Assembly: GCA_951799425.1 (NCBI GenBank)
Contig: OX637409.1
Span: forward strand, 18,959,960-19,023,959
DNA length: 64,000 nucleotides
Direction: 5' to 3'
Origin: Ilex aquifolium
Lineage: Eukaryota > Streptophyta > Magnoliopsida > Aquifoliales > Aquifoliaceae
Part shown: positions 523 to 40,522 of the stretch, one piece after another
How the letters are laid out: each line of letters opens with the position of its first letter
How positions within the stretch are numbered: the first letter of the stretch is position 1
The notes under the pieces: generated by a model
Told to the model about the DNA's origin: nothing
Seen by the model: the letters and a program-made list of their open reading frames with translations, nothing else
Databases searched by the model: none
Translations under genes and position numbers: made by a program

Positions 523-527
523 CTTTC

Positions 528-1199
528 TGATGATGCCTCGGAATTAATCTCCCAGGCCCAAGCCGGTATGGCTCTATTGAGTTTTATGGAATGGGTTTTA
601 AGAGAATTGGAATTATACGAAGACAGACAACAAATGTAAGTGGTTCACCCCAGCCGAAGGACTTGGGCTACGTCCACTATAATGGAGGCTCTTGCTCCTT
701 AATGGTGTGTATTGATCTCAACTGATTACAAGGAAATTCTAGGCGCAGGGGCGCAATAACCCTTCTCTTCTACGAATGTTCTAGGGTTCAGGGCAAAAAT
801 GCTAGGTAGAAGGCCAGGAAGAAGACCCTGTTTCTTGCTTCCACTGTTCTATTTACATCATATCTCTCCTTAGGGTTTTTTGCTCTTGTTCTTCCTTTTT
901 TTGATCTTGTGGGGACCGTTCGTCCTTTGCCTGCAAGCCACTCTGACCGCCGGTGATACTGTGCCCACGACCACCTATCTCTGTTTTTGCAGGGAGTAAC
1001 TCTGAGAAATCAGAGCCGGTTTTCCTTGTCCTTGGAGCACGTGGCGCCACAGGCTTTAACTCGGGTCATGGGCTGAGAATCGAATGTGGGCCGGTTGGGA
1101 CCATTCCCTTTTGGGCTTCGGAGTCCTCAGTCAGTGTTTTCTGGAGGTCTTTGGGCTTGGTCGTAATGGCAGCCCAGGTCCAAAAACATATCCTCATCA
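528..1199 (-). repeat. 3' LTR (left copy)
   Basis: 672 bp, nearly identical to 14396-15087. Relative to the other LTR it lacks about 20 bp near 978-990, and the minus-strand TATA box is altered here (TATAAATA in the right copy reads as TGTAAATA at the matching site). Ends are TG and CA. Confidence 0.93.
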
Positions 1200-1215
1200 G
1201 TGCCCCCCAGCCCCT
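1200..1215 (-). promoter_or_regulatory. Polypurine tract
   Basis: The minus strand directly upstream of the 3' LTR is purine-rich (AGGGGCTGGGGGGCAC), in the position where second-strand synthesis is primed. Its location next to the LTR edge at 1199 supports the element's orientation. Confidence 0.75.
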
Positions 1216-1368
1216 GGTCACGAGAATGACGTCTTCTCTAACCTGGGGATAGGAAGTGTCTTTTCTGAGTTTTTCATAGTCTCCATACGTGGCGGACTGC
1301 GTGGTCAGTCGGCTTTACGCTGGTTTGGGCTGCTTTGGTATTTGCCGGCTGTGATGGGATGGTTTTTA

Positions 1369-1460
1369 CACGTGTCACCATCGGGTGAACCCAACGGTAC
1401 GGTTCCTGAGGCGCGTCCTGTCGTCTCACCTTTCAGGGCATTGAATGCTTTGTATAAAAG
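1369..1460 (+). promoter_or_regulatory. Promoter of antisense gene A (G-box and TATA)
   Basis: A CACGTG G-box core (1369-1374, followed by TC) lies 84 bp before a TATA box (TATAAAAG, 1453-1460). The same arrangement is found before gene B. The region lies inside the retrotransposon but faces opposite to gag-pol. A good splice donor (GTACGT) at 1620 suggests a possible leader intron before the start at 1886; its acceptor is not clear. Confidence 0.5.
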
Positions 1461-1885
1461 TGGGGAAAATCCCTTCACCTGTGTCGCTTTTGCGTTTTTT
1501 GAATCTCCTTACGTTTTCCTCTCCTCCATTGGCTCTCGAGGTGCTTTGTTTCAGACTCTCAGGCGATTCTTAGGGTTTCTGCGTTCCCGGTTATTTTCTG
1601 CATCTAGCACCTTAACTAGGTACGTCTTTCCTCCTTTCTTTATTCTTGCTCGATCTGGATCCCTTCAACCTTCCTTGGTGGGGTTTTGGGTTTCGCTTCT
1701 TGATATGGAGGTTTAGCTACTTTAGGAATCATTCCAACGACCTTTCCCCTCTTACGTGTTTCGTGGACCGTCCTACTTTGCTTAGAGTGTCCTTCCTTCG
1801 GGGTTGGTGTCTGAGACCTCCATTTTTGACGGACTGTGCTTTACATTTGCCTTCCCTCCACTCCGGCTTACGGCCTGGACCTTTG

Positions 1886-4074
1886 ATGGGGAAGCGGGTC
1901 GTTTCTTCCTCTGAATCGGATTCCGAGGACCAGGTAGGCGAGGAGGTCGAGGTAAGTACCTCAGGTTCCCAGAGTGGTAGTTCCGTTGATAGGGCCGTGT
2001 CTGGGTCCGCTCTTATAGAAGAAGCTCGTCCTCTTTCATCCCTTCCTCCTGTTTCTTTTGTTGCGTCAAAGACTAAGAAATCCAAACCGGCTCCTCCCCC
2101 AACTCCTAGGAAAAGAGTTTGTCGGGATCAAGCCGACCTGGCTTGTTGTGCAGCATCGACCCCCAGTTGTCTCAGCGATGAGGATTTAGATGAACTGAGG
2201 CGAGAGTATCGCTTTCCTGACTCCGTTCTCTTACACTCTCCTGACAAACACGAGAGGTGTAATTCTTCTATCCCGGGCCTGGTCTGTTTTTACGAATCCA
2301 CTTTCCGTGCTGGTTTGCGGTTCCCCGTTCATCCTTTAATCCGGATCGTCCTCGCTTTTTATAACATATATCCTGCCCGGCTCTCTCCAAACGGTTGGGG
2401 TCTCCTGATCGGGTTTCTCGTTCATTGGTTGAAGAGTGGAAACGACTCTCAGCCCTCCATTAATGAATTTGCCTCTCTTTTTTAACTTAAGTCTTCCCCT
2501 TCCGCGGGTTTCCTTTACTTTTCGAAAAGGGTCAAAGCGAGGAATTTGATCACCGGGCTTCCTTCTTCCAACAAAGGGTGGAAACCCAAGTTTTTCTTTG
2601 TTAGAGGTGACTCCTGGGAGCTTTCCGGGAAACCAGGGGACATCCCTCTCATTCCCAGGTTTTGGGGAGCTCTAAGGAACATAAGTAAGGCTCTTCAATT
2701 CGACTGCATCTTTTTCTTTCGCTGTTCTTCTTTTACTGACTTAACTTCTGATTTGCAGATTACCGTCCTATCCTTGGGGTCGAGGAAGCGGCAAGATTTG
2801 CTAGAGCCGAGGATTTGGGGTTGCAGTCCTTTTTCGACCTGGTGACCGACGAAAACCTAGCCCTCTACGAACTCGGGCCTCCAGTTGAGCAATCTTCAGT
2901 GCCCGCATCGCCCCTTGCTTCCCCATCTGACCCCATGAAACAAGATTTGATAATGACGATATTCTCGGATACCGAGAAGTCGAGGAAGAAAAGGAAGGTG
3001 GTGAAGGGTTCGCAGCTGTTACCCGAAGGTGCGTCGGTATCCGACCCCCCACCTGTCCCCTCTGAGCAGAAAGAAGAGGTCCTCCTTCCCCATGAGGATG
3101 TGGCTCCTCCCTCGCTCTCTGTTGAGGCTTCCAGGGGCAAATCTTCGATTGAGGGAGTTCCGGGAAGACGACACGAGGCTCCGACAATTCCTCCTCTCTC
3201 TGTCCCTCAGGGAGGCGGGAAGATGGATCCCGCTCACTCTTGGTCCAAGGAGCAAGGGGACGGCTTCCTGCGTGATCCTGAGGTCGCCGTTGTCGCCTTG
3301 TCCGAGCTTGTTTCTACTTCAGATCCCAGGGCAGCCATGCGGGTTCCTTTTGATAGGAAGGTGGATCGCGCTATCCGGGGCATAGCAGAGGTACTTCCTA
3401 TCCTTGCCGTTCTCCTTCTCCGATATTTCGCTATGTCGAGGTCTTCACGGATCTCTCCTTTTCGTCTGACCCCTTTTTCCTCTCAGTCGCTCGCTTGCGT
3501 GAAGATGCTAGGCTTTCACTACAATGAGGAGCTTTCGAGGACAAAGGAGTCCATGGCCGCCCTGTCAGTGAGCAAGGAGGTTGCCGAGGAGAAGGTGAAG
3601 ATTCTGTCCTCGGAGGCTATTGAACTGAAGAGGATTAACGATGAGATGGATGCCCGCCTTCAGGACTTTGCCAAGCTCATGGATTCAAAGGATGACAAGC
3701 TCAAGACCACGGAGGCCGACCTGATAGCCAAGGATTCGGAGCTCAGGGCCAGAGATTCCGAGCTGTCATCTTTGCGGTCTCGTGTTTCGGAGCTCGAGAG
3801 AGAATGCACCTCTGGCTTTGTAAAGGGTTTTCTAAATCTCCAGGATCAGCTTGAGGAGGCCTATCCTGACCTTGACTTGGATCCCTTCGTGCCAATGCCT
3901 GATTTCAAGAAGGCGTCGGTGGTGGACGAGGAGGCCGAGACCCCTGATCCCAATGAGGGTGTGGCTCCTGATGCCGAGAAGGCGCCTGGTCCTGTGGTGG
4001 CAGCGGCGGAGGGGCCATGTATGCCGGCAAGGTCTTCTGGTGAGGGAGCAGGTGAAGAAGAGATCGCTCCTTAA
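1886..4074 (+). pseudogene. Antisense accessory gene A of the retrotransposon, with one in-frame stop
   Basis: Predicted exons are 1886-2684, 2759-3390 and 3487-4074, with GT-AG introns in phase 1 and phase 0; the second intron is 96 bp and open. The start at 1886 begins an acidic Ser/Glu-rich N-terminus (MGKRVVSSSESDSED). Next comes the domain typical of plant 'putative gypsy-type transposon' proteins (Transposase_28-like), with GLRFPVHPLIR, LSPNGW and, after the stop, KGWKPKFFFVRGDSWE. The C-terminal third is a charged coiled coil ending with a GFVKGFLNLQDQ block. A TAA at 2483-2485 breaks exon 1, yet the same frame continues to encode the conserved part of the domain; a C-to-T change is the simplest cause. 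The biochemical function is not known. Gene B (4688-6626) is the intact paralogue and gene C (7091-8142) is a second one. Confidence 0.75.
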
Positions 4075-4485
4075 GGTCGATGTGAGGCCTTCCTGCTGTT
4101 TCCAACTTCCTTGTGACTCTTTCAAGTTGTTCCTTTGTGTAATGCTCCATTGTAACTTCTTTAAATGCTGAAATGAGAACTCTCGTGGTTTTTCCCTTTT
4201 TATGATTGTCGCGTGATGCCTTGCTATAGACTTCTTTGATTTGTGGTTGCATTGTACCTTTCTTAGGCGCTGACCCTTGCTTCTTCACTTGTAGCCGAGC
4301 TTATTTGATTCGAGCTAACCTTCACGCTTCCCCCTTGGGTCGCTTGAACTTCTTAGGGCTATTTTTGTCCTTTCCGGTTGCTTTACTTGTAGTGGAGGTC
4401 CGACGGTTTCGTTCGTTCGAGAACGTGCGCCGTCAGAGGGTTCAGTGATCCCTCGATCGTGGCGTCCAAGAAGCCCCCGCGACGC

Positions 4486-4570
4486 CACGTGTCCCCTTCA
4501 TTAATGGCGAGGGACGTGCATTAACTGCCTTCGGCGACAGTGACAAGGCCTGTCCTGTAGCGCCTATAAA
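4486..4570 (+). promoter_or_regulatory. Promoter of antisense gene B (G-box and TATA)
   Basis: CACGTG at 4486-4491 (followed by TC, as in gene A) lies 79 bp before a TATA box at 4565-4570. Gene B starts at 4688, which gives a leader of about 90 nt. Matching spacing in genes A and B suggests that the promoter was duplicated with the gene. Confidence 0.5.
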
Positions 4571-4687
4571 TGGGCCTCCGAGGAATGATTGTTCTTTACT
4601 GAGCGTAAAAGAAGTCCTTAGTTTTCTGCTGCGACATACATTTCTTTCCCTGTTGCTTCTAAGAAATCTTCTTCGATTCTTGCATTC

Positions 4688-6626
4688 ATGGCTACTCCTT
4701 CCTCTCCATTTGACGTTATGGAGCGAGTTTTTGGCAATGTTGAAGCTAGTGAAATCGATGGGGACGAGGCTCAGCTCCTTGCTAGGCGCTTCGACTTTCC
4801 CCCTGGTGTTATCGTGCGCCCTGCAGACTTGCGCAGGTTCCACAGCCCGGTTACCGATGAAGCTGGCTTCTTCGAGGCCCCCTTTTTGCTAGGGCTTCGA
4901 TTCCCCCTACCTGGCTTGATACGAGACGTCCTTCATTTTTTCAGCTTCTATCCCGCCATGCTCTTCCCATCCGGCTGGGCGGTGCTACTGACCTTTTATG
5001 CGGCGTGGGGAAGGATGTTCCCTCAGGCCAGGGCTAATGTAAGGGAGTTTCTTCACTTTTTCCGCCCTGAGGAGGTATCCGAGTTCTACCACTTCGTCCC
5101 TAAGCGAGGGGGAGAGATTACCATCCGGGATCTCCCGCCGAGCCCTAACGGGTGGATAAGGAGATATTTCTTCGTCTCCGGAGATGGCTGGGAGTTTGGT
5201 TCCCAATTTCCGGGGTCTATCAGAGTTCCTACTGCCTGGGGGCGCCGCAGAAACTTAGGTAAGCTCCTGCCTTCGCATTTGTTGATGCTTGTGTTCATGT
5301 ACTAATGGCGTCACCGGTTCTTATTGCAGGAGAGCTCCCGCCCCTTGGTGCTTCGGAGCTGGCTCGGGTCGACCAAGCGCGTGCTCGCCTCCCCTTTTCC
5401 TATATTGAGCTGATGCATCCCGGGGTTCCCTTGGCGTCAGGTGATCGTGCGCAATCAATATCTCTTATTCTTCTGTTCCCTTACTCGAATCCTTGCTAAG
5501 TTTTTGATCTTGTTTGCGTAGTTCCTTCCTACCTGGTGACCCAGCGCCATATGATCATGGAGTGCATGGGTGAAAGAAGACGGGATAGGGTTGTAGGACC
5601 CCTAGCGAAGAGGACGAGGTTGGGAGAGGGTAGTTCTTCTGGCGAGGTCCCCGTTCCTACCGTCGAGGCTCCAGTTGTTGTGGCCGAGGTTATCACTTAT
5701 GTATCAGATGTTCCCGTTTCTGCACCTGAGGCCCCGAGGTCGACATCAGAGTTGGTCACAAGTGAGGCCACTGCGGGTACTGTGGTGCTCGACCCTGTGG
5801 GAGGGCCTGTTCGGCGAGGCCCTTCTCTAATTGCTGACCCTGAGGCCGATCTGCTTCGGGACGTGAGCTTGAGCAGTCGTGCTCTGATGGAGTTGATTCC
5901 TCGAGCTGACCTGCGCTGCTCTGTAGATCTTCCTTTCCAAGTCCGAAGCCGTGATGCACTTCATGCCCTGCTTGAGGTATATCTTGGTGTTTTTTCCTCT
6001 ACTTCAAACTTCTTGGTATCTTGTAACGTTCTTTATGTTTCCAGTCAGCGACACATGTCTACGCTCTTGGGAGGGAGATTTTTATGCTGAGGAGCGATGT
6101 CCAGATGAGGGGTGCCGAGGTACTTGACGCTCGTCGGCACGGAACCGAGCTGTTGAGCTGGGGCCTGGCCACTGAGAGGGAGTTGGAGCAGGTCCTCGAA
6201 CAGCGGGCTCAGACTTTTAGGCAACTGATTGCTAGTACCTCAGCTGAGGTCTCTCTGAGGGACGAGTTGGCTCGTTTGAAGGAAGAGCAGGAGGCCGAGA
6301 AGGAGGATTTGCTAGAAGCTGTTGTTACCCGTACTCTTCTGGAAGATGAGCTGAAAGAGTCCCGGGCTGCTCTTTCCGAGCTGAATAGGTCTTTAGCTGC
6401 TGAACGTCAGCTCGTAGAGGATCAACGGAAAGATCTCGAGAAGGCGAGGCTGGAGGCGGCTAGGGCTTTTGTTGACGGGTTCTTTAATTTTGCTGACCAA
6501 GCGATGGAGAGATTCCCCTACTTGGACCTTGAGCAATTTCAGCCAAGGTTTGATGCTTCTTCAAGCGGTGGTGCTCCCGACGTTACTCCTACTCCCGACG
6601 CTACTCCTCCTGCAGATCAGGCTTGA
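4688..6626 (+). CDS. Antisense accessory gene B of the retrotransposon (Transposase_28-like)
   Basis: Four predicted exons, 4688-5258, 5330-5440, 5522-5976 and 6045-6626, join in one open frame of 572 codons with GT-AG introns in phases 1, 1 and 0. The N-terminal half (about residues 45-190) is the plant gypsy-type transposon domain: FFEAPFLLGLRFPLPGLIR, then LFPSGW, NVREFLHFF, and NGWIRRYFFVSGDGWEF. The middle is Ser/Pro/Val-rich with a basic patch (GERRRDR, AKRTR). The C-terminal part (from about residue 390) is a long Glu/Leu-rich coiled coil closed by AFVDGFFNFADQAMERFPYLDLEQF, which matches the end of gene A. Of the three copies this is the only one without stops or frameshifts. It is transcribed against gag-pol from its own promoter. 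No catalytic motif is visible, so the function is unknown; DNA or protein binding through the coiled coil is a guess. Confidence 0.75.
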
Positions 6627-7010
6627 GTGCCCAGATTTTCATAGCTGGTTTTCCTTTCTTACTGCTCTTTTCTTGTGTAAACACACGTTTCTTGTAATGG
6701 AACTTTCCCTTCTTTCTCTCAGTGGTGATGTATTTGTTGGTTGCTTGTTATGCTATATATTCCCTTGCCCCCTTACTCGGAGGAGGCCTTGGCCTGTTTG
6801 GAGTAGTATCATTGCTCGAGGTCTGGGCTTCCTTACTTGGAGTTGCTGCGTGTATCTGCCATAGGACATATATATATATGTTTTTTTTTTTGAACAATAT
6901 ACGATGCAGATTTAAGCCAGCCCCCCAGGCGGCTTACCAACTTCTTCGTAAGTTGAGCCAGTATTCAATGCTATTTTGATTGCGAGACTTCAACAGTCAC
7001 CCTTGGGTAC
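6627..7010 (+). other. Spacer between antisense genes B and C
   Basis: Likely the 3' UTR of gene B followed by the upstream region of gene C. No G-box of the type seen before A and B is present. A weak TATA-like run (TATTTATAT) lies at 7011-7019, 72 bp before the gene C start. Confidence 0.4.
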
Positions 7011-7090
7011 TATTTATATCTGTTTGCCTTATTGCTTTTCAAAAAACCTTTCTTCTTTAACTCTTCGTTTCCCACTTGAACCTTGTGGCG

Positions 7091-8142
7091 ATGGATTCTT
7101 CTCCACTCTTCAAGCATCGAGCCCGCGAATCGCTCAAGGGCGATTGGTGTTCTATCTTTCTCCTTCCCTCCCGGATGACGGCTGCGGATGCTGCTGGAAT
7201 GAAGAGTCGATACAACCTTCCGGCGGATCTAAGGGTGAGGGCTCCCACTCCTGACGAACCTTGCAGTATGTCCATTCCAGGCGAGGTCTCCTTTTTCGAG
7301 GGCGCATTTGAGTATGGCTTTCGACTCCCCCTTTATCCAGATTTCGCCCGGATTCTTTCTCATCATGGCCTATGTCCCTCTCGTCTTTCCCCCGAGTGGT
7401 GGGCTACCATGGTTGGCTTCTTCATTTTCTGGCGTATGCAAGGCTTTGAGACCTTTCCTTCTGTTTCAGAATTTTTCTATTTCCTTGATCTCTCTTTCGA
7501 CTTTCCACCGTTCTTTAGTTCTCTCTCTTTTAAATGGTACTTCCACCCTCCATTGATTGCTGATATTCCCTCTTCCCCTGAGGGGTGGGCCCAACGCTTC
7601 TTTTTCGTATCTGGGGACTCCTGGGAGTCCGCTGTGGGGGAAGATCGGCATGTTTGGGTTCCTTGTTCCTGGACGAGTTTTCGGGAGAGAGGTAACCATT
7701 TCGTCATTCCAAGGCTATCTGACCCTTTGTTGGCAGCGAACTAACTGAACTTGTTTGTGCTGATGTTGTGTTGTGCAGGTATTCCCGCTCTGACTCCATT
7801 GGAGGCGTTCCATGTTAGGATGGTCGAGAGGGCTTCCCCTCGTCCTTATTCTGCTCTCGTTACCCCTTAGAACCTTGTCCGTTATGGGATAGGGGGAAGT
7901 TCGACCAGGATCCAGCGCACGCCCTCTTTTGCTGATGAGCCAGAGGGAGTTGACTTGGAAGATCCCGAGGTGGAGGTCCTGAAGAGGAAGTTAGCAGAAG
8001 TGGAGAGAGAGATGTTCTGAAGGAGGAGAATGCCAAGCTCAAGGCGGGTGCTGCTCGGCTGGAGAAAGTGGAGGAAAAGAAGGATGCTCCGATGGAGGAG
8101 AAAGTGGAGGAGGTCCTAGTAGGGGAGGGAGGGCAGAACTAG
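7091..8142 (+). pseudogene. Antisense accessory gene C of the retrotransposon, truncated and broken
   Basis: Exon 1 is 7091-7691 and ends at a GTAACC donor in phase 1. Exon 2 starts at 7779 after TTGTGCAG. Exon 1 codes the same domain as genes A and B: SFFEGAFEYGFRLPLYP, LSPEWWATMVGFF, SVSEFFYFL and PEGWAQRFFFVSGDSWES. Exon 2 meets a TAG at 7868-7870, and about 150 bp further a small frameshift occurs in a GAGAGAGA run near 8008-8016. Beyond both, charged Glu/Lys coiled-coil coding continues to a stop at 8140-8142. The C-terminal region is much shorter than in A and B. I read it as a decaying third paralogue. It could still make a short protein of about 230 residues that carries the conserved domain. 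Confidence 0.65.
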
Positions 8143-8365
8143 AGGCCCCCTTTTTTTTTTTGTAACTTCTATGTACTTGTTGGTGGTTGCTCCTTTTGAA
8201 TTGTTGACTTCTACCCATAGTGCAATGAAATTTCAGGCTTTTGTCTTCCAGTTATTTTCTTTTTACTAAGAATGTGGTTATCTGCTGAACTAGGAAGCCT
8301 GTCTGTTTTGAGTTGTCGAGCTGCCGAGTTCGTTGTCTTTCAAGCGGCAAAGTCTTAGGCTGGTT

Positions 8366-8746
8366 CTGAGCTTACGAGCTCTTAAGCTGAGAAGTCTTTG
8401 CTAATGCTGAGCTGACAAGCTCTTAGACTGAAAAGTCTGTAAATGCTGAGCTTACGAGCTCTTAGACTGAAAAGTCTGTAGATCCTGAGCTTACGAGCTC
8501 TTAGACTGAAAAGTCTGTAGATCCTGAGCTTACGAGCCCTTAGACTGAAAAGTCTATAGATCCTGAGCTTACGAGCTCTTGAGCTTACGAGCCCTTAGAC
8601 TGAAAAGTCTGTAGATCCTGAGCTTACGAGCTCTTGGGCTTACGAGCTCTTGGGCTTACGAGCCCTTAGACTGAAAAGTCTGTAGATCCTGAGCTTACGA
8701 GCTCTTGGGTTTACGAGCCCTTAGACTGAAAAGTCTCGTAAATCCT
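8366..8746. repeat. Tandem array of about 39-bp units with two hairpins each
   Basis: About seven head-to-tail units. Each holds GAGCTTACGAGCTC and AGACTGAAAAGTCT, usually joined to the next unit by GTAGATCCT. Both blocks are perfect 5-bp inverted repeats around four bases (TACG and GAAA). Later units carry one or two extra copies of the first block (GGGCTTACGAGCTCTT), so the array grew at two scales. It lies between the end of gene C and the end of pol, where plus- and minus-strand transcription converge. Confidence 0.9.
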
Positions 8747-8836
8747 GTGTAGAGCGAACTTTTTGGGAAACTTTTGTATCTCTCATTGATAAAATCCGGT
8801 CTTTTTACAATAACCCTCCACTCCTCACGAGAAACT

Positions 8837-11800
8837 CTATTGGTAATACCGCTTCAAGTGGTCTGCGTTCCATGAGTGTTGTAGGTCCCTGCCCTCCTCC
8901 GTTTGCAGCTCGTAGTTTCCAGGTCGGATAATCCTTTTTACCACGTAAGGTCCTTCCCAGTTTGGTCCCAACTTGCCATGGGCAGGGTCCTTTCTGGCTG
9001 GGAGCAATTTCTTCAACACTAGATCTCCTGGCTTAAAGCCTCTCCTTCTTACTCGCTTGTTATAGTATCTTGTTGTACTCCTTTGGTAGGAAGAGATTCG
9101 TTGTAGGGCCTCGTCTCTCTTCTCGTCCAGGAGGTCGAGGTTGACCAGCAGGGACCTTTCGTTCTGTGTTGGATTGAACAGTTCGGTTCTTGCGGTGGAC
9201 ACTCCTATCTCAACGGGAGCCATGGCCTCCGTCCCGTATGCTAGGCTGAAAGGGGTTTCTCCAGTCGCAGTTCGAGTAGTGGTTCGGTATGCCCACAACA
9301 CTGCGGGGAGGTAGTCTACCCATTGGGACTTAGATGCCTCCAGCCTGGTCTTGAGCGCCAGTTTGATAGTTCGGATGGTCACCTCGGCTTGCCCATTAGA
9401 CTGCGGGTGGGCTGGTGCCGAGAAGAAGTTTTTGATTCCCAACCCGCTACAGAAATTTGTGAACATCGGATTGTCAAATTGTTTCCCGTTGTCGGAGACC
9501 ACTGCTCTGGAGACGCCGAAGCGGCAAATTATAGACTTCCAAACGAAATTCTTGACCTTCTGTGCTGTGATCTTTGCCAGGGGTTCGGCTTCTGCCCACT
9601 TGGTGAAGTAGTCTACTGCGACCACAACGAATTTGCATTGTCCAACTCCTATTGGTAGGGGTCCTAAGATGTCCAACCCCCACTGTTGAAAGGGCCAAGG
9701 GCTGACTACTGGGGTGAGGAGTTCAGGTGGGCAGTGCGGCAAGTTCCCGTGAACCTGACACGCTTGGCATCTCTTCACTATCTCTTTGGCGTCTTTGGAC
9801 ATTGTTGGCCAGAAGTAACCTTGCCGCAAGGCCTTGCTAGCTAATGTCTTCGCGCCGATGTGATTGCCGCACATGCCTTCGTGGATTTCTCTCAGGATGT
9901 AATTTGCTTCCGTTCCTGTCACGCATTTCATTAAGGGAAAAGAAAAACCTCTTTTGTATAGGTTACCTTGGATTAGTGTGAACCTTGCCGCTCTGGCTCT
10001 TAGCTTGGAGGCGTTCTTCGGGTCATCTGGCAGCACTCCATCATGTAAGAAGGATATGATGGGATCCATCCATGAGGCATCCTCTTCAACCGGCATAGCC
10101 CGAGCTTCTTCGGCAGGTTCGTTGTTAGGCTGTATGCTGGGTCGTGCTAGGACTTCGACAGGTGTTCGCCCTGGTAAGTCTTGACTGCCAGTAGTGGCCA
10201 ACTTGGCAAGGGCATCGGCCCGATGATTGGCTTCTCGGGGAATTTGGACTAGTTCGGTCGATACGAATTTCCTCAGTAGTCTTTGCACTTCTGCCAGGTA
10301 TAGCGCCATCTTTTCGTCCCTGGCGGCATATTCCTCTTCGACTTGCCTGACCACTAGTTGCGAGTCGCTGTACACCACGATCTGCTGAGCCTCCATTGAG
10401 AGGGTCAGGTTCAGACCGGCTATAAGGGCTTCGTATTCGGCTTCATTGTTAGAGGCTTGAAAGTCAAATCTCAAGGCATACTCCAAGTCATACCCTTCTG
10501 GCGACGTCAGGATGAGCCCGGCTCCGCTTCCCTGAACATTTGAAGCCCCATCCACGAATAATTTCCAGGTCGGAACGTCGGGGACACAGTCTTGGCTTTC
10601 TTCGTTTTCCTCGGGTGGAGAGGTAAACTCGGCAAGAAAATCTGCCAGGACTTGTCCCTTGTTGGCAGTCCTGGGCTTGAACTTGATATCGAACTCGCTA
10701 AGCTCCATCGCCCACTTTATCAACCTTCCTGAGGCTTCAGGTTTATGCAAGACCTGCCTCATCGGTTGGTCCGTCGGGACTTCGATGGTGTGGGCTTGAA
10801 AATATGGTCTCAACCTCCGAGCGGCGACTAGCAAGGCCAGCACTAGTTTTTCCATCTTTGGGTACCTCTCCTCGGCGCCTCGGAGTGCTTTACTGCAAAA
10901 ATAGACAGGCAGCTGGATCCGGTCCTTGTCTCTAACCAGTGCGGCGCTGACCGAGAAATCTAATACCGCAAGGTAAAGTGTCAGCACTTCTCCCTCTTGT
11001 GGGCTTACCAATACGGGCGTGGATGCCAGGTAGACCTTCAGGGCTTGGAACGCCTCTTCGCATTTTTCATCCCACTGGAATGCCGCCTTAAGGACCTTGA
11101 AGAACGACTGGCATTTATCGCTGGAGCGCGATACAAACCTGTTGAGCGCCGCTATTCTTCCGGTTAGGCGCTGGATTTCTCTTGTGGTGGTGGGGGGCTT
11201 CATCTCAAGGACTGCTCTGACCTTCACTGGGTTCGCCTCAATGCCCCGGCTATTAACTATGAAGCCCAAGAATTTTCCAGCCGACACCCCGAAGGCGCAT
11301 TTTGCGGGGTTCAGCTTCATTCGGTACTTTCTCATGATCTCGAACGACTCCCTAAGGTGTTGGATGTGGGCCTCGGTTTTGAGTGATTTTACAAGCATAT
11401 CATCTATATACACCTCCATGGTCGAGCCCAGCTTTTCCCTAAACATCCGGTTGACCAGCCTCTGATAGGTTGCTCCCGCGTTCTTCAGTCCGAATGGCAT
11501 TACCTGGTAGCAAAAGATCCCCTGCTCTGTGACGAACGAGGTCTTCTCTTGGTCGTTTGGGTCCATCCGGATTTGGTTATACCCTGAGAAAGCATCCATG
11601 AAGCTCAGGAGCTCATGGCCGGCCGTCGCGTCGACTATGAGGTCGATCCGAGGCAGCGGGAAACTGTCCTTCGGGCATGCTCGATTGAGGTCGGTAAAAT
11701 TGATACAAAGTCGCCACTTGCCGTTTACTTTCTTTACTAGAACGACGTTGGCTAACCAAGTTGGGTAATCGACTTCTCTGATGGCCTTGGCGCGCGATAG

Positions 11801-13405
11801 CTTGGCTACCTCTTCGTTGATCGCCTTCTGTCTGTCTGGAGCGAAGCTTCTCCTTTTTTGCCTTACCGGCTTGCAGTTAGGATCTACACTGAGGTGGTGT
11901 ACGATCACGGCGGGGTCTATCCCTTCCATGTCTTCCTGCTTCCAGGCGAAGACGTCAGCGTTTGCCTTCAGAAAAGAGATGAGTTTTTCCTTGATGTCTA
12001 GTAACAGCATGGAGCCCACAAAAACTACTTGCTCCGGGTCCTCACCCAGCTGCACTGGCTCCAACTGTTCCGAGGGGGCAGGTCGGGCTTCCACCTCGTC
12101 CCTCATATCCAAGTCCTCCAGCTGGACTGACTCCACCTCTTTTTGCCGCATGGATGCCACGTAACACTCCCTGGCGAGGCGTTGGTCTCCCCTCACCACT
12201 CCGACTCCACTCTCGGTCGGGAATTTCATTACCAAGTGATATGCAGAAGGTACTGCCTTAATGGAGTTGAGGGATGACCTTCCCAACAAGACGTTGTAGG
12301 CAGATGGGGCGTCCACCACTAAGAAGCGGGTGGTGGTGGTGACTTGGCAGGGCGGATCTCCTATGGTGAGGACAAGCGGTATAGATCCGACTGGCAAAAC
12401 TCTTTCTCCCGAGAATCCCAAGAGGTGGGTTTTCACGGGTTCCAGTCTCGACTTCTCTATTCCGAGCTTCTCGAAGGCCGCTAAGACGATGATATCTGCC
12501 GAGCTACCGTTATCGACGAGCACCCGATGTATGGTCTTGTTTGCTATGATCGCTTTTATGACCAAAGGGTCGTCATGGGGGTGCTGGCATTCTTCTAGGT
12601 CCGCATCAGAAAAGGTGATCTCCATGTCTCGGCGGGCCTTTTTGTTGATGGTTTGGACCGCGAGGAAGTCTTCGGATCGAGCTCTTCTGGCATGAGCCCT
12701 CCGAGCCGAGCTTGATTCGCCACCTCCAGCGAAACCCCCAAAGATGACTCGGATCTCTCCGATGGCTTGTTGATGTTGCGGTGGTGCGGCGGCAGCTCGG
12801 GCTTCTCGCCCTTGATTGTTCTGTGCTCTCTGTTCTCCTGCTATGTAGTGGCGCAGATGGCCTCTCTGAATTAGGTATTCGATCTCCTTCTTCAACTGAA
12901 TACAGTCGTTTGTTTCGTGGCCCGTGTCCTTATGGTAGTCGCAGTACTTGCTGGCATCTCGCCTGCTGGGGTCGAACTTCATCCGAGGAGGCCATCGGAC
13001 GAATCTTTCGTTTTGTACTTCATGCAGGACTTGGGATATCGAGGTGACGAGGGGTGGGAGCCGCGCTGGGACGAACCGCTGCTGCAGCTCTTGGGGAGGG
13101 GGTCCCAGGCGATCCCGGACGTTCCCTTTCCTTGGGGAGCAGTCTTTCCTCGGGGATCGATCACGTCTTCTCTCCTTCCTGGGACTGTGATCTCTTTTCT
13201 TCTTATCTCCGTCCGTCGTCGCCGTACTCCCCTTCAGGCGGAGGGCCTCTTCGCCATTTATGTACTTCTCGGCTTTCGCCAGTACTTCGGCCATGGTAGC
13301 TTGGGGATTCTTGGCGATCGAGAAGAGGAGATCCTTGGATTGGATCCCGAGTCCCGACATGAAGGTGGTTAGCGCGAACTTGTCGTCTACACTCTCTACC
13401 TTCAA
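8837..13405 (-). CDS. Retrotransposon gag C-terminus plus Pol polyprotein
   Basis: An uninterrupted frame of 1522 codons. Residues 1-60 complete the Gag domain. A Lys/Arg-rich stretch follows, then a CX2HX4HX4C finger (from Cys155). The aspartic protease active site is VDNGSSAD (Asp298). Reverse transcriptase spans about 540-715 with YIDD at 666-669. An RNase H follows, then a second one with LFVDGAS, EYEAL, YSDSQLV and HRADALA (about 950-1090), as in Tat elements. Integrase has the zinc-binding HHCC region and catalytic Asp1245, Asp1305 and Glu1341, the last two separated by 35 residues. A KLGPNWEGPYVV block and the terminal WNADHLKRYY lie after integrase; there is no chromodomain. The Met at 13405 is only the first one after two stops in the same frame (13424-13426 and 13457-13459), so this is the downstream part of one gag-pol frame rather than a separate gene. 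Confidence 0.93.
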   Translation of the reverse strand: MKVESVDDKFALTTFMSGLGIQSKDLLFSIAKNPQATMAEVLAKAEKYINGEEALRLKGSTATTDGDKKKRDHSPRKERRRDRSPRKDCSPRKGNVRDRLGPPPQELQQRFVPARLPPLVTSISQVLHEVQNERFVRWPPRMKFDPSRRDASKYCDYHKDTGHETNDCIQLKKEIEYLIQRGHLRHYIAGEQRAQNNQGREARAAAAPPQHQQAIGEIRVIFGGFAGGGESSSARRAHARRARSEDFLAVQTINKKARRDMEITFSDADLEECQHPHDDPLVIKAIIANKTIHRVLVDNGSSADIIVLAAFEKLGIEKSRLEPVKTHLLGFSGERVLPVGSIPLVLTIGDPPCQVTTTTRFLVVDAPSAYNVLLGRSSLNSIKAVPSAYHLVMKFPTESGVGVVRGDQRLARECYVASMRQKEVESVQLEDLDMRDEVEARPAPSEQLEPVQLGEDPEQVVFVGSMLLLDIKEKLISFLKANADVFAWKQEDMEGIDPAVIVHHLSVDPNCKPVRQKRRSFAPDRQKAINEEVAKLSRAKAIREVDYPTWLANVVLVKKVNGKWRLCINFTDLNRACPKDSFPLPRIDLIVDATAGHELLSFMDAFSGYNQIRMDPNDQEKTSFVTEQGIFCYQVMPFGLKNAGATYQRLVNRMFREKLGSTMEVYIDDMLVKSLKTEAHIQHLRESFEIMRKYRMKLNPAKCAFGVSAGKFLGFIVNSRGIEANPVKVRAVLEMKPPTTTREIQRLTGRIAALNRFVSRSSDKCQSFFKVLKAAFQWDEKCEEAFQALKVYLASTPVLVSPQEGEVLTLYLAVLDFSVSAALVRDKDRIQLPVYFCSKALRGAEERYPKMEKLVLALLVAARRLRPYFQAHTIEVPTDQPMRQVLHKPEASGRLIKWAMELSEFDIKFKPRTANKGQVLADFLAEFTSPPEENEESQDCVPDVPTWKLFVDGASNVQGSGAGLILTSPEGYDLEYALRFDFQASNNEAEYEALIAGLNLTLSMEAQQIVVYSDSQLVVRQVEEEYAARDEKMALYLAEVQRLLRKFVSTELVQIPREANHRADALAKLATTGSQDLPGRTPVEVLARPSIQPNNEPAEEARAMPVEEDASWMDPIISFLHDGVLPDDPKNASKLRARAARFTLIQGNLYKRGFSFPLMKCVTGTEANYILREIHEGMCGNHIGAKTLASKALRQGYFWPTMSKDAKEIVKRCQACQVHGNLPHCPPELLTPVVSPWPFQQWGLDILGPLPIGVGQCKFVVVAVDYFTKWAEAEPLAKITAQKVKNFVWKSIICRFGVSRAVVSDNGKQFDNPMFTNFCSGLGIKNFFSAPAHPQSNGQAEVTIRTIKLALKTRLEASKSQWVDYLPAVLWAYRTTTRTATGETPFSLAYGTEAMAPVEIGVSTARTELFNPTQNERSLLVNLDLLDEKRDEALQRISSYQRSTTRYYNKRVRRRGFKPGDLVLKKLLPARKDPAHGKLGPNWEGPYVVKRIIRPGNYELQTEEGRDLQHSWNADHLKRYYQ

Positions 13406-13456
13406 ACATTCCTGGTTGAAACGTTATACGTAGCTTCGGAGGGACTCGTTGAGTCC

Positions 13457-14356
13457 CTACTTAACGCTCAGTAGGTGGTAGGACTGCTTTCTGTACGTCC
13501 TTGCTCCAATGAAATGGGATACGAACTGTATGGATAGTTCTCTGAAAGACGAGATTGACGCTGGTCGTATTCGGTTAAACCAGGCCATGGCCGACCCTTT
13601 AAGGGTGATGACGAAAGCCCGACAGCGGATAGGGTTCGGGTATCCTTGCAACTCCATCTGATTTTTGTACAAGTTTAGATGATCAACCGGATCCTTGGTC
13701 CCATCAAATGCCTCTATCGAGGAAGTCCGAAATTTTTGGGGAAGAGGGAAATGGAGGACCTCCGGAGTGAACGGTGACTCCGTTTGCTGAACCAAGGCGT
13801 CCATGGTGTCGGGGGTTCGCCCCTTAACCACTTCTTTCATATTGCCTAGCTCTCGTTGGAGCTCACAGATTTCTTGCCCCCAGGCATGGTCATTTACGTT
13901 CTGGGGGTAGGGCCTATCTTCTTGGTAGGCTGCCCTAGCCCTACTGTGAGCTTCATCGTCATGCTCCTCGGGATGTCTTCTTCGGTGGTTTTCGCCAGAA
14001 TAGCTGCACTCATGGAGCTCGGTCACCCCGTTGGGCGGAGCTTGGCGCTCTTGGAGTGGGGGAACGATGTCGTGCTCTTCTTGGAGGGGAAGAGGCTCTT
14101 GCCGAGCCGGGGGGAACCGAGGGAGCTGATGAGTTTGTATCCAATCCATCAGCTCCTGGTTCTGTTTCATCAGCTGTATTGTAGTTCTATGGTAAGTTTC
14201 CAGTTCGTTGACCGGAGGTAGGTTCGTCGCTGGGGGGTGACCCTCAGCGTCCTCCATGTGCGTCGGAAAGTTCTCCGGTAAGTTTTGGTGACCTTGGGGA
14301 TTGGCAGGAGCTTTACTCATATTCTGAGTAGAGACCATCAAGTATATAAGATTCAT
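13457..14356 (-). pseudogene. Retrotransposon gag, cut off by stop codons
   Basis: A 299-residue frame on the minus strand, just inside the primer-binding site. The N-terminal part is polar and Gln/Glu-rich. From about residue 195 it has the retrotransposon Gag domain (FDGTKDPVDHLNLYKNQM, then AMAWFNRIRPASISSF and FVSHFIGARTYRKQSYHLL). It stops at TAG (13457-13459). The same frame continues, meets a TAA at 13424-13426, and then runs open into pol. Both stops could come from C-to-T changes. Without readthrough, Pol would not be made from this copy. Confidence 0.85.
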
Positions 14357-14375
14357 GAGAGAACGATGAAAACCG

Positions 14376-14393
14376 TTCCCACAGACGGCGCCA
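14376..14393 (-). promoter_or_regulatory. Primer-binding site
   Basis: On the minus strand, two bases inside the 5' LTR, the sequence starts TGGCGCCGTCTGTGGGAA. TGG followed by GCGCC fits pairing with a tRNA 3' end; the first nine bases match the tRNA-Asp type used by many plant gypsy elements, the rest less so. Confidence 0.75.
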
Positions 14394-14395
14394 AC

Positions 14396-15087
14396 TGACG
14401 ATGCCTCGGAATTAATCTCACAGGCCCAAGCCGGTATGGCTCTATTGGGTTTTATGGAATGGGTTTTAAGAGAATTGGAATTATACGAAGACAGACAACA
14501 AATGTAAGTGGTTCACCCCAGCCGAAGGACTTGGGCTACGTCCACTATAATGGAGGCTCTTGCTCCTTAATGGTGTGTATTGATCTCAACTGATTACAAG
14601 GAAATTCTAGGCGCAGGGGCGCAATAACCCTTCTCTTCTACGAATGTTCTAGGGTTCAGGGCAAAAATGCCAGGTAGAAGGCCAGGAAGAAGACCCTGTT
14701 TCTTGCTTCCACTGTTCTATTTATATCCTATCTCTCCTTAGGGTTTTTTGCTCTTGTTCTTCCTTTTTTTGATCTTGTGGGGACCGTTCGTCATTTGCCT
14801 GCAAGCCACTCTGACCGTCGGTGATACTGTGCCCACGACCGCCTGGGTTCGTTCGGCACCACCTCTCTCTGTTTTTGCAGGGAGTAACTCTGAGAAATCA
14901 GAGCCGGATTTCCTTGTCCTTGGAGCACGTGGCGCCACAGGCTTTAACTCGGGTCATGGGCTGAGAATCGAATGTGGGCCGGTTGGGACCATTCCCTTTT
15001 GGGCTTCGGAGTCCTCAGTTAGTGTTTTCTGGAGGTCTTTGGGCTTGGTCGTAATGGCAGCCCAGGTCCAAAAACCTATCCTCATCA
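14396..15087 (-). repeat. 5' LTR (right copy)
   Basis: 692 bp with TG and CA ends, followed by the target duplication CTTTC at 15088-15092. This is the upstream LTR for the minus-strand gag-pol and so the promoter copy. Confidence 0.93.
14718..14725 (-). promoter_or_regulatory. LTR TATA box
   Basis: The minus strand reads TATAAATAG inside the 5' LTR, about 360 bp upstream of the gag start. The matching site in the 3' LTR has lost the box. Confidence 0.5.
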
Positions 15088-15092
15088 CTTTC

Positions 15093-17428: not shown

Positions 17429-18580
17429 GGGTGCGTTTGGTAACGTTTTTGTTTTTATGTTTTTTTTATAAAAAAAAATAAAACAAAAATTTTGTTTTTT
17501 TGTGATAAAAATTAAAAATATAAAACATGTTTGGTAGTCATTTATATTTAAAAATTTATACAAACAAAAATAAAAAATATGTTTGGTATTATTCCAAAAA
17601 TTTACCACCCAACACCTCCGCCAACCACCAGCCACCCACCACCACCGAAAACCAGCCACCACCGAAAACCAGCCACCCACTGAAATCCACCCCAATCGGC
17701 TGAAACCCACAGCCACCCAACCCACCCCCACCCCCACCCCCATCCCCGAAACCCACAACCACCCAACCCACCCCCACCCCCAACCCCGAAACCCACAAAC
17801 CCCCAACCCACCCCCACCCCCACCCCCACCCCCATCCCCGAAACCCACAACCACCCAACCCACCCCCAACCTCGAAACCCACAGCCACCCACCACCACCC
17901 CATCCCCGAAAACCAGCCAACCACCACCCCCGAAACCCACAGCCACCCACCACCACCCTATCCCCGAAAACCAGCCACCCACCACCACCGAAAACCAACC
18001 ACCCCCTAAACCCACAACCACCCAACCCCACCGCATCCCCGAAATCCACAGCCATCCAACCCATCCCCATCCCCGAAAATCCACCACCACCAACCAACCC
18101 ACCACTACCCAAACCCACCACCACCACCAACCAACCCCACCACCACTAGCGAAAGAAGGTTGAGAGAGAGAGTGAGAGCGACAGAAGGAGAAGGGGGGGG
18201 GGAGATGGCGTCTGGAGCAACCAGCGATGGCTTCGGCTTCTTGTCGTCTTTGATCTTCCTTAGCACAGAGAGAGAGAGAGCAACAGAGATCTGAGAGGTG
18301 AAAGAGATATGCCTCTTTATATACTCAAGAAAAAAATTTATATTTTGTTGCTAAGGAAAATCGAAGCCCAGACCTCATTAAGTGGACTCGCGCGTGTTTA
18401 TTTTTTTGATGTTTTCAAAAGCATCATTTTGGATGTTTCTATATTTGAGCCTTGTTTTTGAAACAGAGCAATTAAAAAAAAAATAAAAACGTTCACCAAA
18501 CATGCTTTTATTTTTTTTTGGGCCATAAAATGAAAACAAAAATAAAAAAAAACGAAAACTTCAGGTTACCAAACGGGGCC
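17429..18580 (-). mobile_element. Harbinger/Tourist-like non-autonomous element, nested
   Basis: Terminal inverted repeats GGGTGCGTTTGGTAACG and, reversed, GGCCCCGTTTGGTAACC, flanked by TTA on both sides (17426-17428 and 18581-18583), the usual PIF/Harbinger duplication. Read on the minus strand it has a leader module with a TATA box (TATATAAAG, 18315-18323), a CT/GA-rich stretch, then a G/T-rich minisatellite. The element at 57758-59685 has the same order. No transposase is present. The long Gly/Trp/Val-rich frame across it comes from the minisatellite and is not a convincing gene. Confidence 0.75.
17600..18140. repeat. CCACC-rich minisatellite
   Basis: Degenerate units of about 25-35 bp built from CCCCGAAACCCACA and CCACCCACCACC. 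It codes repetitive low-complexity peptides on both strands and lies inside the nested TIR element. Confidence 0.85.
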
Positions 18581-32480: not shown

Positions 32481-32859
32481 GGATAGGAGGAGTGTTTTCT
32501 AAGATGTAAACAAGAGGCTTTGCCTAGAGTTTTTTTTTATCATGGTGTCCTATTGTTCTTCATAATTATACCACTAAAGGAAGACCGATTCCTTTTAGGT
32601 TTGAAAATATATGGTTTGAGCATTATTCCTTTAGCGATAAGTTTAAATAGTGGTGGGAGAATGAATGTCTTGATGGTTGGGAAGAATATAATTTCATGAA
32701 AATATTGGAGTTTGTAAAGAAGAATATCAAGGAGTGGAATAAGGAAGTTTTTGGCGATATTTGCGTTACTAAGAGTTTTATTTTAGAAAGAATTGTGGAC
32801 ATTGACAAGATTGAGGAGGGAGGGGGGTTGGATGATGGACTGAGAAAAGAGAGATGAGA

Positions 32860-35270
32860 CGTAGAAATAAGTTTGAGGAGATTCTTTTTAGGGAAGAAAT
32901 TAGTTGGAGACAAAAATCTAGGTTGAAATGGGTGAAGGAAGGAGATAATAATACTAAGTTTTTACATAGGGTGGCAAATGAAAATAGGAAGAAGAAAATT
33001 ATCAATAAATTGGAAGTTGAAAATGGTGACTTGATGAAAGTGTTTTCAGAATTTTTTCAAAGTGGAGTGGTTAATGATATAACTAATGCTACTTTCATTT
33101 GTCTCATTCCGAAAAAGGAAAATTCATTGAAAATTATGGATTTTAAGCCGATTAGTCTTATTACAAGCTTTTATAAGATTATTGCAAAAGTTTTATCTTT
33201 AAGGTTTAAGGAAAGTTTAAATGATACTATTTCAAGATTTCAATGGGCTTTTGTTAAGGGAAGACAAATTATTGATGTAGCTTTGGTGGCTAACGAGGTG
33301 GTTGAAGAATATAGAGTTAGAGGAAAGGAGGGAATTGTTTTGAAGATTGACTTTGAGAAGACTTATGATCATGTGGATTGGAATTTTTTGGAGTTTGTAT
33401 TGGAGAAAAAATTGTATGGGTTAAGATGAAAGAAGTGGATTAGTGGATGCCTACATTCTATGAATGGTAAGCCTAGAGGTAAGTTTCAGTTATCTTTAAT
33501 GGTAAGCCTAGTGGTAAGTTTAAGGCATCTAGGAGATTGAGACAAGGGGATCCATTATCACATTTCTTGTTCACTATAATGGTGGATGGTTTGAGCAGAT
33601 TAATGATGAGGGCGGAAAGATGCAATGTGGTAGAGGGTTTTGTTGTGGGTAGAGATAGGGAGGCAGTGTCTCACTTATAATTTGCAGATGATACAATCTT
33701 TTTTTCCTCAGGGGATGAAAAATTTTTAAATCTTAAAAAATTGTGGATGTCCGGACTTGAGGTGAGCATATATAAAAGTTTGATGGTGGGAATTAATGCT
33801 AGTCAAGATAAGATTGTTAAGTTGGCTGGAGTTTTGGGATGTTCTGTAGGTGGGTAGCCTTTGAAATTTTTGGGGCTTCCCTTAGGTGGTAACCCTTTTT
33901 CTTTGGGGTTTTGGGATCCGGTTGTAGAGAAAATTGGTAAAATATTGGATGGTTGGAAAAAAGCCAGTATATCTTAGAGGGGGGAGACTTACTTTAGTTC
34001 ATTGTTGTTTTGTCTAACATTTCTTTTTATTTCTTGTCTCTTTTCAAAATACCTGGTGTTGTGGAGAGGAAGATTGAAGGGATGATGATGGATTTCTTGT
34101 TGGGAAGATAGTGGTGAAAGAAGAAATATCACTTGATTGGATGGGATATTGTGTCGAGAGCTAGAGTTAAGGGTGGGCTTACTTTTGATAATTTGAAAGT
34201 TAGAAATAAAGCTCTTGTTAAAAAATGGCTTTGGAGGGGTTTCCACTTGAACAAAACTCATTGTGGTATTTGGTTATTAGAAGCAATTATGATTTGCTGG
34301 TTAATGAATGAGAGGTTAATGGGATTGAAAGAGGTAGTTTTTGAAACCCATGAAAATTCACTTCCGAAGGATTACCTTCCTTTTCTCAAAGGGTTAGATT
34401 TGTTGTGGGTAATAGGGACAAAGTGCGGTTTTGGGAGGATTTGTGGATTGGGTTATCCTTATCTTGTTTATTTCCTCGGCTTTATAGCCTTTCAAGGTAT
34501 CATCACATCTGTATTGCATCAATAGTTAGGTCTTTTTCAAATCTGATGTCGTGGGACTTTGGTTTTCGTAGGAGTCTTAATGATCAGGAAATGTTGGAAT
34601 TGGTCTCACTTCTTTCTTTGCTTAGTAATATAAATTTACATCAATAATTAATTGACAAAAGAAGTTGGATCATTTATTCAACTGGCTTGTTCTCTTGGAA
34701 ATCCTACTTTGAATCCTTGGTTGATGATATCACTCTCCTAATTTTTTATCCATCTTTGAAGATATGAAAGGCTAAGGTGCCTTTGAAAGTTCAAGTTTGT
34801 GCATGAGTTATATTACTCATGGGAAGATCAACACTAATTATTTGCTTCAAAAAAAAAAAAAAGACCTTGAACCTTCCTCTACCCTCAATGGTGTGTTGTG
34901 CAAGAAGGATTGCGAGAATGTGAACCATTTGTTTTTGCATTGTTCAATTTCGTTGGCCTTATGGAATAAGTTGTTTGAAGTGGCGGGGCTTTCTTGGGTG
35001 ATTCCAAATTCAATTTCTACAATGTTGTGTGTGGATTATAAAGGATTTGGAAGGGAATGTAAAGGAAGTACTGTTTGGGAATATGCTTTCTTTGCAATTA
35101 TTTGGGTGATTTGGTTGAAGAGAAATTCAAGAATTTTTGACAATAAGTATAAAGAGCTTGATATGTTTTGGAACCGAATTCACTTTTTAGCAACTTTTGT
35201 GGGTGTTGGTTTCAAAGGAATTTGCAAGTACACTTCTTTTTGGAATCATGGCGAATTGGAAGTGGGCTTG
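32860..35270 (+). pseudogene. LINE reverse transcriptase and C-terminal zinc region, broken
   Basis: The frame 32854-33429 holds SRLKWVKEGDNNTKFLHRVA, then ATFICLIPKKENS, ISLITSFYKIIAKVLS, WAFVKGRQIID and VLKIDFEKTYDHVDW. After a stop the active-site block FADDTIFFS follows at about 33681, and PLKFLGLPLGGNPF near 33859. The final part (34790-35270) has CENVNHLFLHCSISLALWNK, the zf-RVT type region. Multiple stops separate these blocks. Confidence 0.8.
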
Positions 35271-39470: not shown

Positions 39471-40522
39471 GACCGTGGGTGTTGGTTTGAATGTGAGTCC
39501 ATTATGTTATTGAAAAACTTTTTTCAATATATTTTTTATTTCTTAATTAATAAAAATACTTTATTTGTGTACTTTTTTAATTTTTAAATAATATTATAAA
39601 TTATTTAATTTAAAATAAATGACTGAAATTGATATTAAGTATGGTATTAAAATCGTACACTAGCATTACCCTTCCGTCAATTTTAAAATGGAAAAAAATA
39701 TTATATAATAATGTACTCCAATGGAAATGATCGCACATGCTTGAATAGGAAGGAACTGTTTGATCCCAAACCATGAAAGCAAAATGATTGAGCCCTATAT
39801 CCCTATGTAACAGTGATAAGTTACACATTGGCTAGGAGGGTAATCCCTAACTCACGTAGATATTAAACATGGTTCGATTAACAGAAATATCGTAATAACA
39901 TAATAGTGACAGATTGTATTTTAGAGTTAATAGTTATGACTCAAATCAAATATTTTACAATGAAAAATCCTTTTAGTCATGTTTAGGGGTTATTACCTGA
40001 TGATCATCTCTCCCTTTTTTTTTTTCTCTTTTTTAGATTTAAAAAAAAGATGAGGAGTTCGAGTGTATTCACATGGTCAAGTGTTTACTATATTTTTTAT
40101 GTTGTGGTTAAATACAAGTGTATGGTTTTAATGTGATTAAAATATAACTATCGTTAAAAGATTTTTTTATGTAAGTATGATTAAATAATTTATTATAATT
40201 AAAATAATTATTGTCATTAAATCGTAAATTGTAAGATAAGCAATTAGATCTGAATATTGTGAATCATTATTATTATGATAAAAATCTATATAATAAAGTA
40301 CAATACAATTCAAATCTCAAAAGATAAATAAAATGACTTTAACTTTTTGCAGTTGAGATTTCTTCAAATTTTACTTTAAAATTAATCAGACGGCTAATAT
40401 TAACGACCCAAATTTAATAGGAAAATAGGTCCCTAAATGTGTGTTTGTGTGACTTTTTAAAAGTGTTTTTAGAATTTATAATTTCTCATAAATACTTAAA
40501 AAAAAAAATAGTGTTTGGAATC
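39471..40522. other. AT-rich spacer, no gene seen
   Basis: Highly AT-rich. Its right end (40430-40515) has GTGTTTGTGTGACTTTTTAAA and later AGTGTTTGGAATC, resembling Tourist-type ends, but a matching right terminus was not found. Confidence 0.5.

What the first reader, a model, noticed from the sequence alone, without database searches (positions are those of the whole stretch)
528..15087. Retrotransposon carrying three antisense genes in tandem
Between pol and the 3' LTR lie three separate genes transcribed against gag-pol (1886-4074, 4688-6626, 7091-8142). Extra antisense ORFs are established for Tat-lineage elements, but a tandem triplet with introns and at least two recognisable promoters is unusual; I do not recall a description. 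The element has made a small gene family inside one transposon. Seen directly: LTRs, target duplication and opposite coding strands. Inference: the three genes serve the element or its silencing balance.
Basis: partly seen in the sequence, partly recalled or inferred. Interest (0 to 1): 0.75.

Follow-up and report, generated by a model that had tools for sequence, protein, structure and literature searches.

The report
Retrotransposon with three antisense sister genes
A plant jumping gene carries, backwards relative to its own machinery, three sister genes of one known but unexplained family, of which one is intact, one is interrupted once and one is short and broken.

Summary
Window 528-15087 is a full-length plant Ty3/gypsy element on the minus strand: LTRs 528-1199 and 14396-15087, 5-bp target duplication, gag-pol 14356-8837. 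The 7.6 kb between pol and the 3' LTR holds three plus-strand genes. They are not unrelated inserts: all carry a Transposase_28 (PF04195, "TRP28") region, are 32-33% identical there, and share a predicted first intron at the same place and phase. A and B also share a tail and a further intron position. B is an intact predicted four-exon gene of 572 codons. A has one premature stop. C is short and broken.

Antisense TRP28 ORFs are already described as characteristic of Retand elements (Vicient 2025). What looks new is a divergent tandem family of three with shared introns. The text I could search does not describe it, but surveys by uninterrupted ORFs and Pfam cut-offs could miss member B. Copies elsewhere in the genome, expression and lineage phylogeny could not be tested. 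The role, nuclear accessory regulators acting on the element's DNA or silencing, is inferred. New variant of a known kind; moderate interest.

The parts
523..527 (.). target-site duplication CTTTC, left copy
528..1199 (-). 3' LTR
1200..1217 (-). G-rich polypurine-tract-like stretch next to the 3' LTR
   Evidence: read from sequence printed; inference
1453..1458 (+). TATA box (TATAAA), 433 nt ahead of the ATG of gene A
1886..4074 (+). gene A: predicted exons 1886-2684, 2759-3390, 3487-4074; TRP28 domain then tail; in-frame stop at 2483-2485
4565..4570 (+). TATA box (TATAAA), 123 nt ahead of the ATG of gene B
4688..6626 (+). gene B: predicted exons 4688-5258, 5330-5440, 5522-5976, 6045-6626; 572 open codons; diverged TRP28 domain plus tail
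7091..8142 (+). gene C: predicted exon 7091-7691, second exon from 7779; TRP28 domain; stops and a frame change in the second exon; lacks the long tail of A and B
8366..8747 (.). tandem array (39/16/55/71-bp periods) of short hairpins between the 3' ends of gene C and pol
8837..14356 (-). gag-pol; in-frame stops at 13457-13459 and 13424-13426, in the gag part
14372..14393 (-). primer-binding-site-like stretch beginning TGG, 2 nt inside the 5' LTR (priming tRNA not identified)
   Evidence: read from sequence
14396..15087 (-). 5' LTR
15088..15092 (.). target-site duplication CTTTC, right copy

Best explanation
This is a Retand-like Tat element whose antisense accessory gene was duplicated twice inside the element, long before this insertion, so that it now carries three diverged TRP28 paralogues in tandem. 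Shown: homology, shared place and phase of the predicted first intron, opposite strand, one intact member. Inferred: each gene is transcribed from its own internal promoter (TATA boxes for A and B). Their introns face against the genomic RNA, so they are not spliced out of it and survive reverse transcription. The proteins enter the nucleus, may pair through their coiled-coil-like tails, and bind DNA through TRP28 to regulate the element's transcription or counter its silencing. Divergence of the three fits specialisation of members rather than dosage.
For: PF04195 hits: A 3.6e-8 and C 1.6e-6, above the curated cut-off; B 0.0099, below it. Pairwise BLASTP E 2e-18 to 2e-23. At E up to 0.01, tblastn with each first exon finds, besides itself, only the other two genes in the 64-kb window. 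Intron 1 is phase 1 at the same alignment end in 3 of 3 genes; A and B share a phase-0 intron site. The A and B tails are homologous, E 2e-11. In the shared domain identity at codon positions 1 and 2 is 42-55% against 33-39% at position 3, as expected for constrained proteins. In-frame stops agree with neutral decay since insertion: A 1 seen, 0.53 expected; B 0 seen, 0.46; C 1 seen, 0.26; gag-pol 2 seen, 2.03. A and B hold NLS-like basic clusters. Published: the Grande antisense protein is nuclear and its gene has its own promoter; TRP28 is predicted to bind DNA.
Against: No expression, splicing, binding or localisation data. A single copy was examined, so conservation of the triplet is unknown. 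C is short and broken; its count was cut at 8015, just before a further in-frame stop (codon 281), and leaves out the frame change, so C may have been broken before insertion. Basic clusters are weak evidence: as many arise in 43 of 2000 shuffles for A and 162 of 2000 for B, and C exon 1 has none. No coiled-coil predictor was run; the tail is called so from its composition and weak sub-threshold Pfam matches to long helical proteins. Structure models were too poor to use (mean pLDDT 48.0 and 48.5); no solved relative at E up to 1.
Confidence: 0.55

Rival explanations
1. Only A and B (or B alone) matter. C is a truncated relic, and the triplet is a passing stage of duplication and decay with no function of its own.
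For: C lacks the long tail shared by A and B and has stops and a frame change. Only A and B have TATAAA boxes ahead of them. C exon 1 has no NLS-like cluster.
Against: C exon 1 is open for 200 codons, scores above the PF04195 cut-off and keeps its intron. One stop in C up to 8015 is not unusual for decay since insertion (0.26 expected, P 0.23).
Confidence: 0.25
2. The three genes did not duplicate inside this lineage. They were brought together from different Retand families by template switching or nested insertion, so the element is a chimera.
For: Divergence is high (32-33% protein identity), and the stretches upstream of A, B and C and after C share no detectable DNA similarity (6 of 6 pairs without a match), as for old, separately evolved members.
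Against: Strand and intron layout are uniform. Very old tandem duplication predicts the same divergence.
Confidence: 0.25
3. The antisense transcripts act as RNA: they pair with genomic RNA and feed small-RNA silencing or self-limitation, and the proteins are incidental.
For: Roles through protein or through dsRNA, or both, are discussed for antisense ORFs (PMC7264820).
Against: Shared intron sites, a spliced frame of 572 open codons, and identity that is lower at third codon positions point to selected proteins.
Confidence: 0.1

Closest known systems
Retand-lineage (Tat) elements with antisense TRP28 ORFs (Vicient 2025, PMC11963269)
   Same: Long pol-3'LTR region, antisense PF04195 ORF, tandem-repeat array next to pol, 5-bp target duplication
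   Different: Three TRP28 paralogues here. pol-3'LTR region 7637 bp against 2,933-6,566 bp there; internal region 13,196 bp against cluster averages of at most 12,869 bp. [quoted passage not shown] The main text read does not mention several TRP28 genes in one element; its figures and supplements were not seen
Maize Grande gene23, rice RIRE2, Silene Retand antisense ORFs (as reviewed in PMC7264820)
   Same: Antisense gene between pol and 3' LTR; Grande's has its own promoter and a nuclear product; Retand ORF4 has PF04195
   Different: No tandem set of three homologous genes is described in the parts read; their sequences were not compared
HTLV-1 antisense gene HBZ (PMC10186651, passages)
   Same: Spliced antisense gene of a retroelement encoding a nuclear regulator
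   Different: Analogy only: promoter in the 3' LTR, bZIP domain; no homology claimed or tested
VANC anti-silencing proteins of VANDAL DNA transposons (PMC6446971, passages)
   Same: Plant transposon-encoded accessory protein; model for an anti-silencing role
   Different: Different element class; protein not compared here

Membership tests
Tat/Retand lineage | second RNase H (aRH) between RH and integrase (Ogre and Retand, PMC6317226) | tested here: met
   RT_RNaseH 815-911, RVT_3 958-1076, Integrase_H2C2 1172-1225 in the pol ORF; taking RVT_3 as aRH is inference
Tat/Retand lineage | reverse transcriptase groups with Retand in a tree | not testable with these tools
   no reference RT set at hand; the one relative found (L001, 61% identity) is unclassified
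Tat/Retand lineage | antisense ORF with PF04195 between pol and 3' LTR | tested here: met
   A and C above the curated cut-off, B below it
Tat/Retand lineage | 5-bp target duplication (usual for plant LTR elements, not specific) | tested here: met
Tat/Retand lineage | primer-binding-site type | tested here: inconclusive
   TGG starts 2 nt inside the LTR; tRNA not identified; no tRNA gene found in the window with a bacterial-code scan
Ogre | plant mobile domain PF10536 in the extra ORF (57% of Ogre elements, PMC6317226, so not strictly defining) | tested here: not met
   no PF10536 hit at E up to 1 in the gene pieces scanned; exon 2 of B and the second exon of C were not scanned
Ogre | extra ORF ahead of gag (recalled as an Ogre trait) | tested here: not met
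   first in-frame gag ATG used at 14356, 39 nt inside the LTR edge
PF04195 Transposase_28 proteins | score above the curated cut-off | tested here: met
   A 34.0 and C 28.7 bits against 26.2; B 16.5, below, but homologous to A and C

The most novel reading that the evidence does not exclude
The element kept a working family of three specialised TRP28 regulators, each its own intron-bearing antisense gene, which may act as mixed complexes. Such arrays are widespread but overlooked, because diverged members such as B fall below Pfam cut-offs and introns break their ORFs. Some of the 32 antisense ORFs without a known domain in the Retand survey would then be hidden TRP28 paralogues.
Probability: 0.3. 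Interest if true: 0.65.

Novelty: new variant of a known kind. Interest (0 to 1): 0.45.

Why it matters
The function of antisense TRP28 genes is an open question. Three paralogues in one element, aligned with each other, show which parts are kept: the domain core, the intron-1 site, and in A and B the tail. They also give a natural test of whether members specialise. If multi-gene arrays are common, current surveys undercount these genes, and a retrotransposon would be carrying a small intron-bearing gene family through an RNA stage because the genes lie on the other strand.

Tried and rejected
Own-genome search for other copies (genome search): the same request 8 times, none answered. Relatives in viral contigs: TRP28 alignment, 22 pattern matches, 0 confirmed; pol ORF, no match; RT segment, 2 matches, 0 confirmed. 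RT segment in bacterial and archaeal genome contigs: 56 pattern matches, 1 relative, L001, a 4661-base contig filed under Streptomyces clavifer, probably plant contamination, not used further. Two structure predictions gave mean pLDDT 48.0 and 48.5, so no fold search was made. Solved structures: 0 matches at E up to 1. Considered and rejected: three unrelated nested insertions (homology and shared intron site); chance ORFs; a programmed gag-pol read-through, because the two stops lie in the gag part (the PF03732 match, itself below its cut-off at 21.4 against 24.1 bits, ends at profile position 54 of 97 just before the first stop) and their number fits decay. An expected-stop count for gag-pol used a wrong frame (64 stops) and is discarded in favour.

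Full report
What is there. The element spans 528-15087 and is read on the minus strand. Its LTRs (528-1199; 14396-15087) differ at 13 of 672 aligned sites plus one 20-nt indel (K2P 0.0196; alignments). That is about 0.75 or 1.4 million years at 1.3e-8 or 7e-9 changes per site and year, both rates recalled from general knowledge. A perfect 5-bp duplication, CTTTC, flanks it. The gag-pol frame from 14356 has two in-frame stops in its gag part, 2.03 being expected from the LTR divergence, so this copy is probably no longer autonomous. No DNA similar to the element was found in 15093-64000 (blastn, E up to 1e-3).

The three genes. Between the pol stop (8837) and the 3' LTR lie 7637 bp with three plus-strand genes. 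Introns of GT...AG form were read from the sequence; no transcript supports them. Intron 1 is 2685-2758 in A, 5259-5329 in B and 7692-7778 in C, all phase 1 and all just after the same block of the domain alignment. B has two more introns, 5441-5521 (phase 1) and 5977-6044 (phase 0). A has one more, 3391-3486 (phase 0), which is 96 nt long and also open if not spliced, so it is the least certain; its site matches B's last intron in the alignment of the tails. Splicing gives B one open frame of 572 codons, A 672 codons with a stop at codon 200, and C stops at codons 231 and 281 with an apparent frame change near the second.

Relationship. PF04195 (Transposase_28, 'Putative gypsy type transposon') is hit by A (3.6e-8), C (1.6e-6) and, below the curated cut-off, B (0.0099). 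By tblastn C exon 1 finds A at 3e-28, B exon 1 finds A at 4e-26 and C at 5e-16; the weakest of the six searches, the first part of A against B, is 9e-16. The matches of B and C to A run on past A's stop in the same frame. Protein identity over the domain is 32-33% in 3 of 3 pairs; codon positions 1 and 2 agree more (42-55%) than position 3 (33-39%). This suggests protein constraint during divergence, although three old sequences do not allow a dN/dS estimate. A and B share the tail (E 2e-11, A read without removing its second intron), including a motif near the C-terminus, FVxGFxNxxDQ...PxLDLxxFxP; I see no such motif in C's frames. Upstream and downstream stretches show no DNA similarity (6 of 6 pairs without a match), so any duplication is old.

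State of decay. Under neutral change since insertion, expected in-frame stops are 0.53 for A (1 seen), 0.46 for B (0 seen) and 0.26 for C up to 8015 (1 seen). The data are thus compatible with all three being open at insertion. For C this is generous: the count ends just before a second in-frame stop and leaves out the frame change. With one copy this cannot be told from a C that was already broken in its parent.

The array. At 8366-8747, between the 3' ends of gene C and pol, a tandem array is built of two short hairpins with four-base loops. GAGCT-TACG-AGCTC and variants have all five pairs in 9 of 11 cases found, G-T counted as a pair; AGACT-GAAA-AGTCT is found 7 times, identical each time, which says nothing about selection on the pairs. 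The search patterns allowed limited variation, and more degenerate units, for example at about 8383 and 8409, fall outside them. As RNA the plus strand folds better than its 100 shuffles (z -8.45), and so, less strongly, does the minus strand (z -5.93). Arrays next to pol are common in Retand elements. The hairpin content and the place between two converging units suggest a role at transcript ends, which is speculation.

Comparison with print. Vicient 2025 (PMC11963269; parts 1-3 of 5 read, and passages) reports TRP28 antisense ORFs in all but two of 63 clusters, a pol-3'LTR region of 2,933-6,566 bp and frequent arrays next to pol. The terms 'intron', 'two TRP28' and 'two antisense' do not occur in its main text; figures and supplements were not seen. 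Vicient and Casacuberta 2020 (PMC7264820; parts 1-2 of 3 read) review antisense ORFs. Neumann 2019 (PMC6317226; passages) finds Transposase_28 in 23% of Retand elements. Passages only were seen of PMC11728184 (it names ORF3/4 of Silene Retand-2), PMC12786077, PMC10186651, PMC6446971 and PMC3091746. The listings of searches showed no title or abstract describing a tandem TRP28 triplet; three of these listings were capped (40 of 1,034; 25 of 256; 20 of 2,233). Steinbauerova 2011, Kejnovsky 2006 and Gomez-Orte 2013 were not read, so absence from print is not established.

Judgement. The finding is real and better than stated in one respect, a true gene family with shared intron sites, and weaker in another, since only B is intact here. 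The lineage trait is known; the divergent tandem triplet is a variant. Function rests on inference from published nuclear localisation and predicted DNA binding of relatives, not on anything tested here.

Noticed in passing
8366-8747: Tandem array made of two hairpins with four-base loops (TACG and GAAA), lying between the converging 3' ends of gene C and pol; 9 of 11 of the first kind fully paired with some variation in the stem, 7 of 7 of the second kind identical.
   Followed up: partly
13424-13459: Two in-frame stops in the gag part, so this copy is probably non-autonomous; the number fits neutral decay.
   Followed up: yes
17604-18146: C-rich tandem repeat region with strong GC skew.
   Followed up: no
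32836-35270: Remains of a probably non-LTR type reverse transcriptase: RVT_1 hit above its cut-off, zf-RVT hit just below (27.2 against 27.5 bits).
   Followed up: no
40512-41708: 398-codon open frame in CCA/ACC-rich repeats, low complexity, strong GC skew.
   Followed up: no
52687-55475: Gene with ankyrin repeats and a PGG domain (two pieces scanned); the combination is recalled as typical of plants.
   Followed up: no
L001 2894-3139: A contig filed under Streptomyces clavifer encodes a reverse transcriptase 61% identical to this one over 82 residues, probably plant contamination.
   Followed up: no
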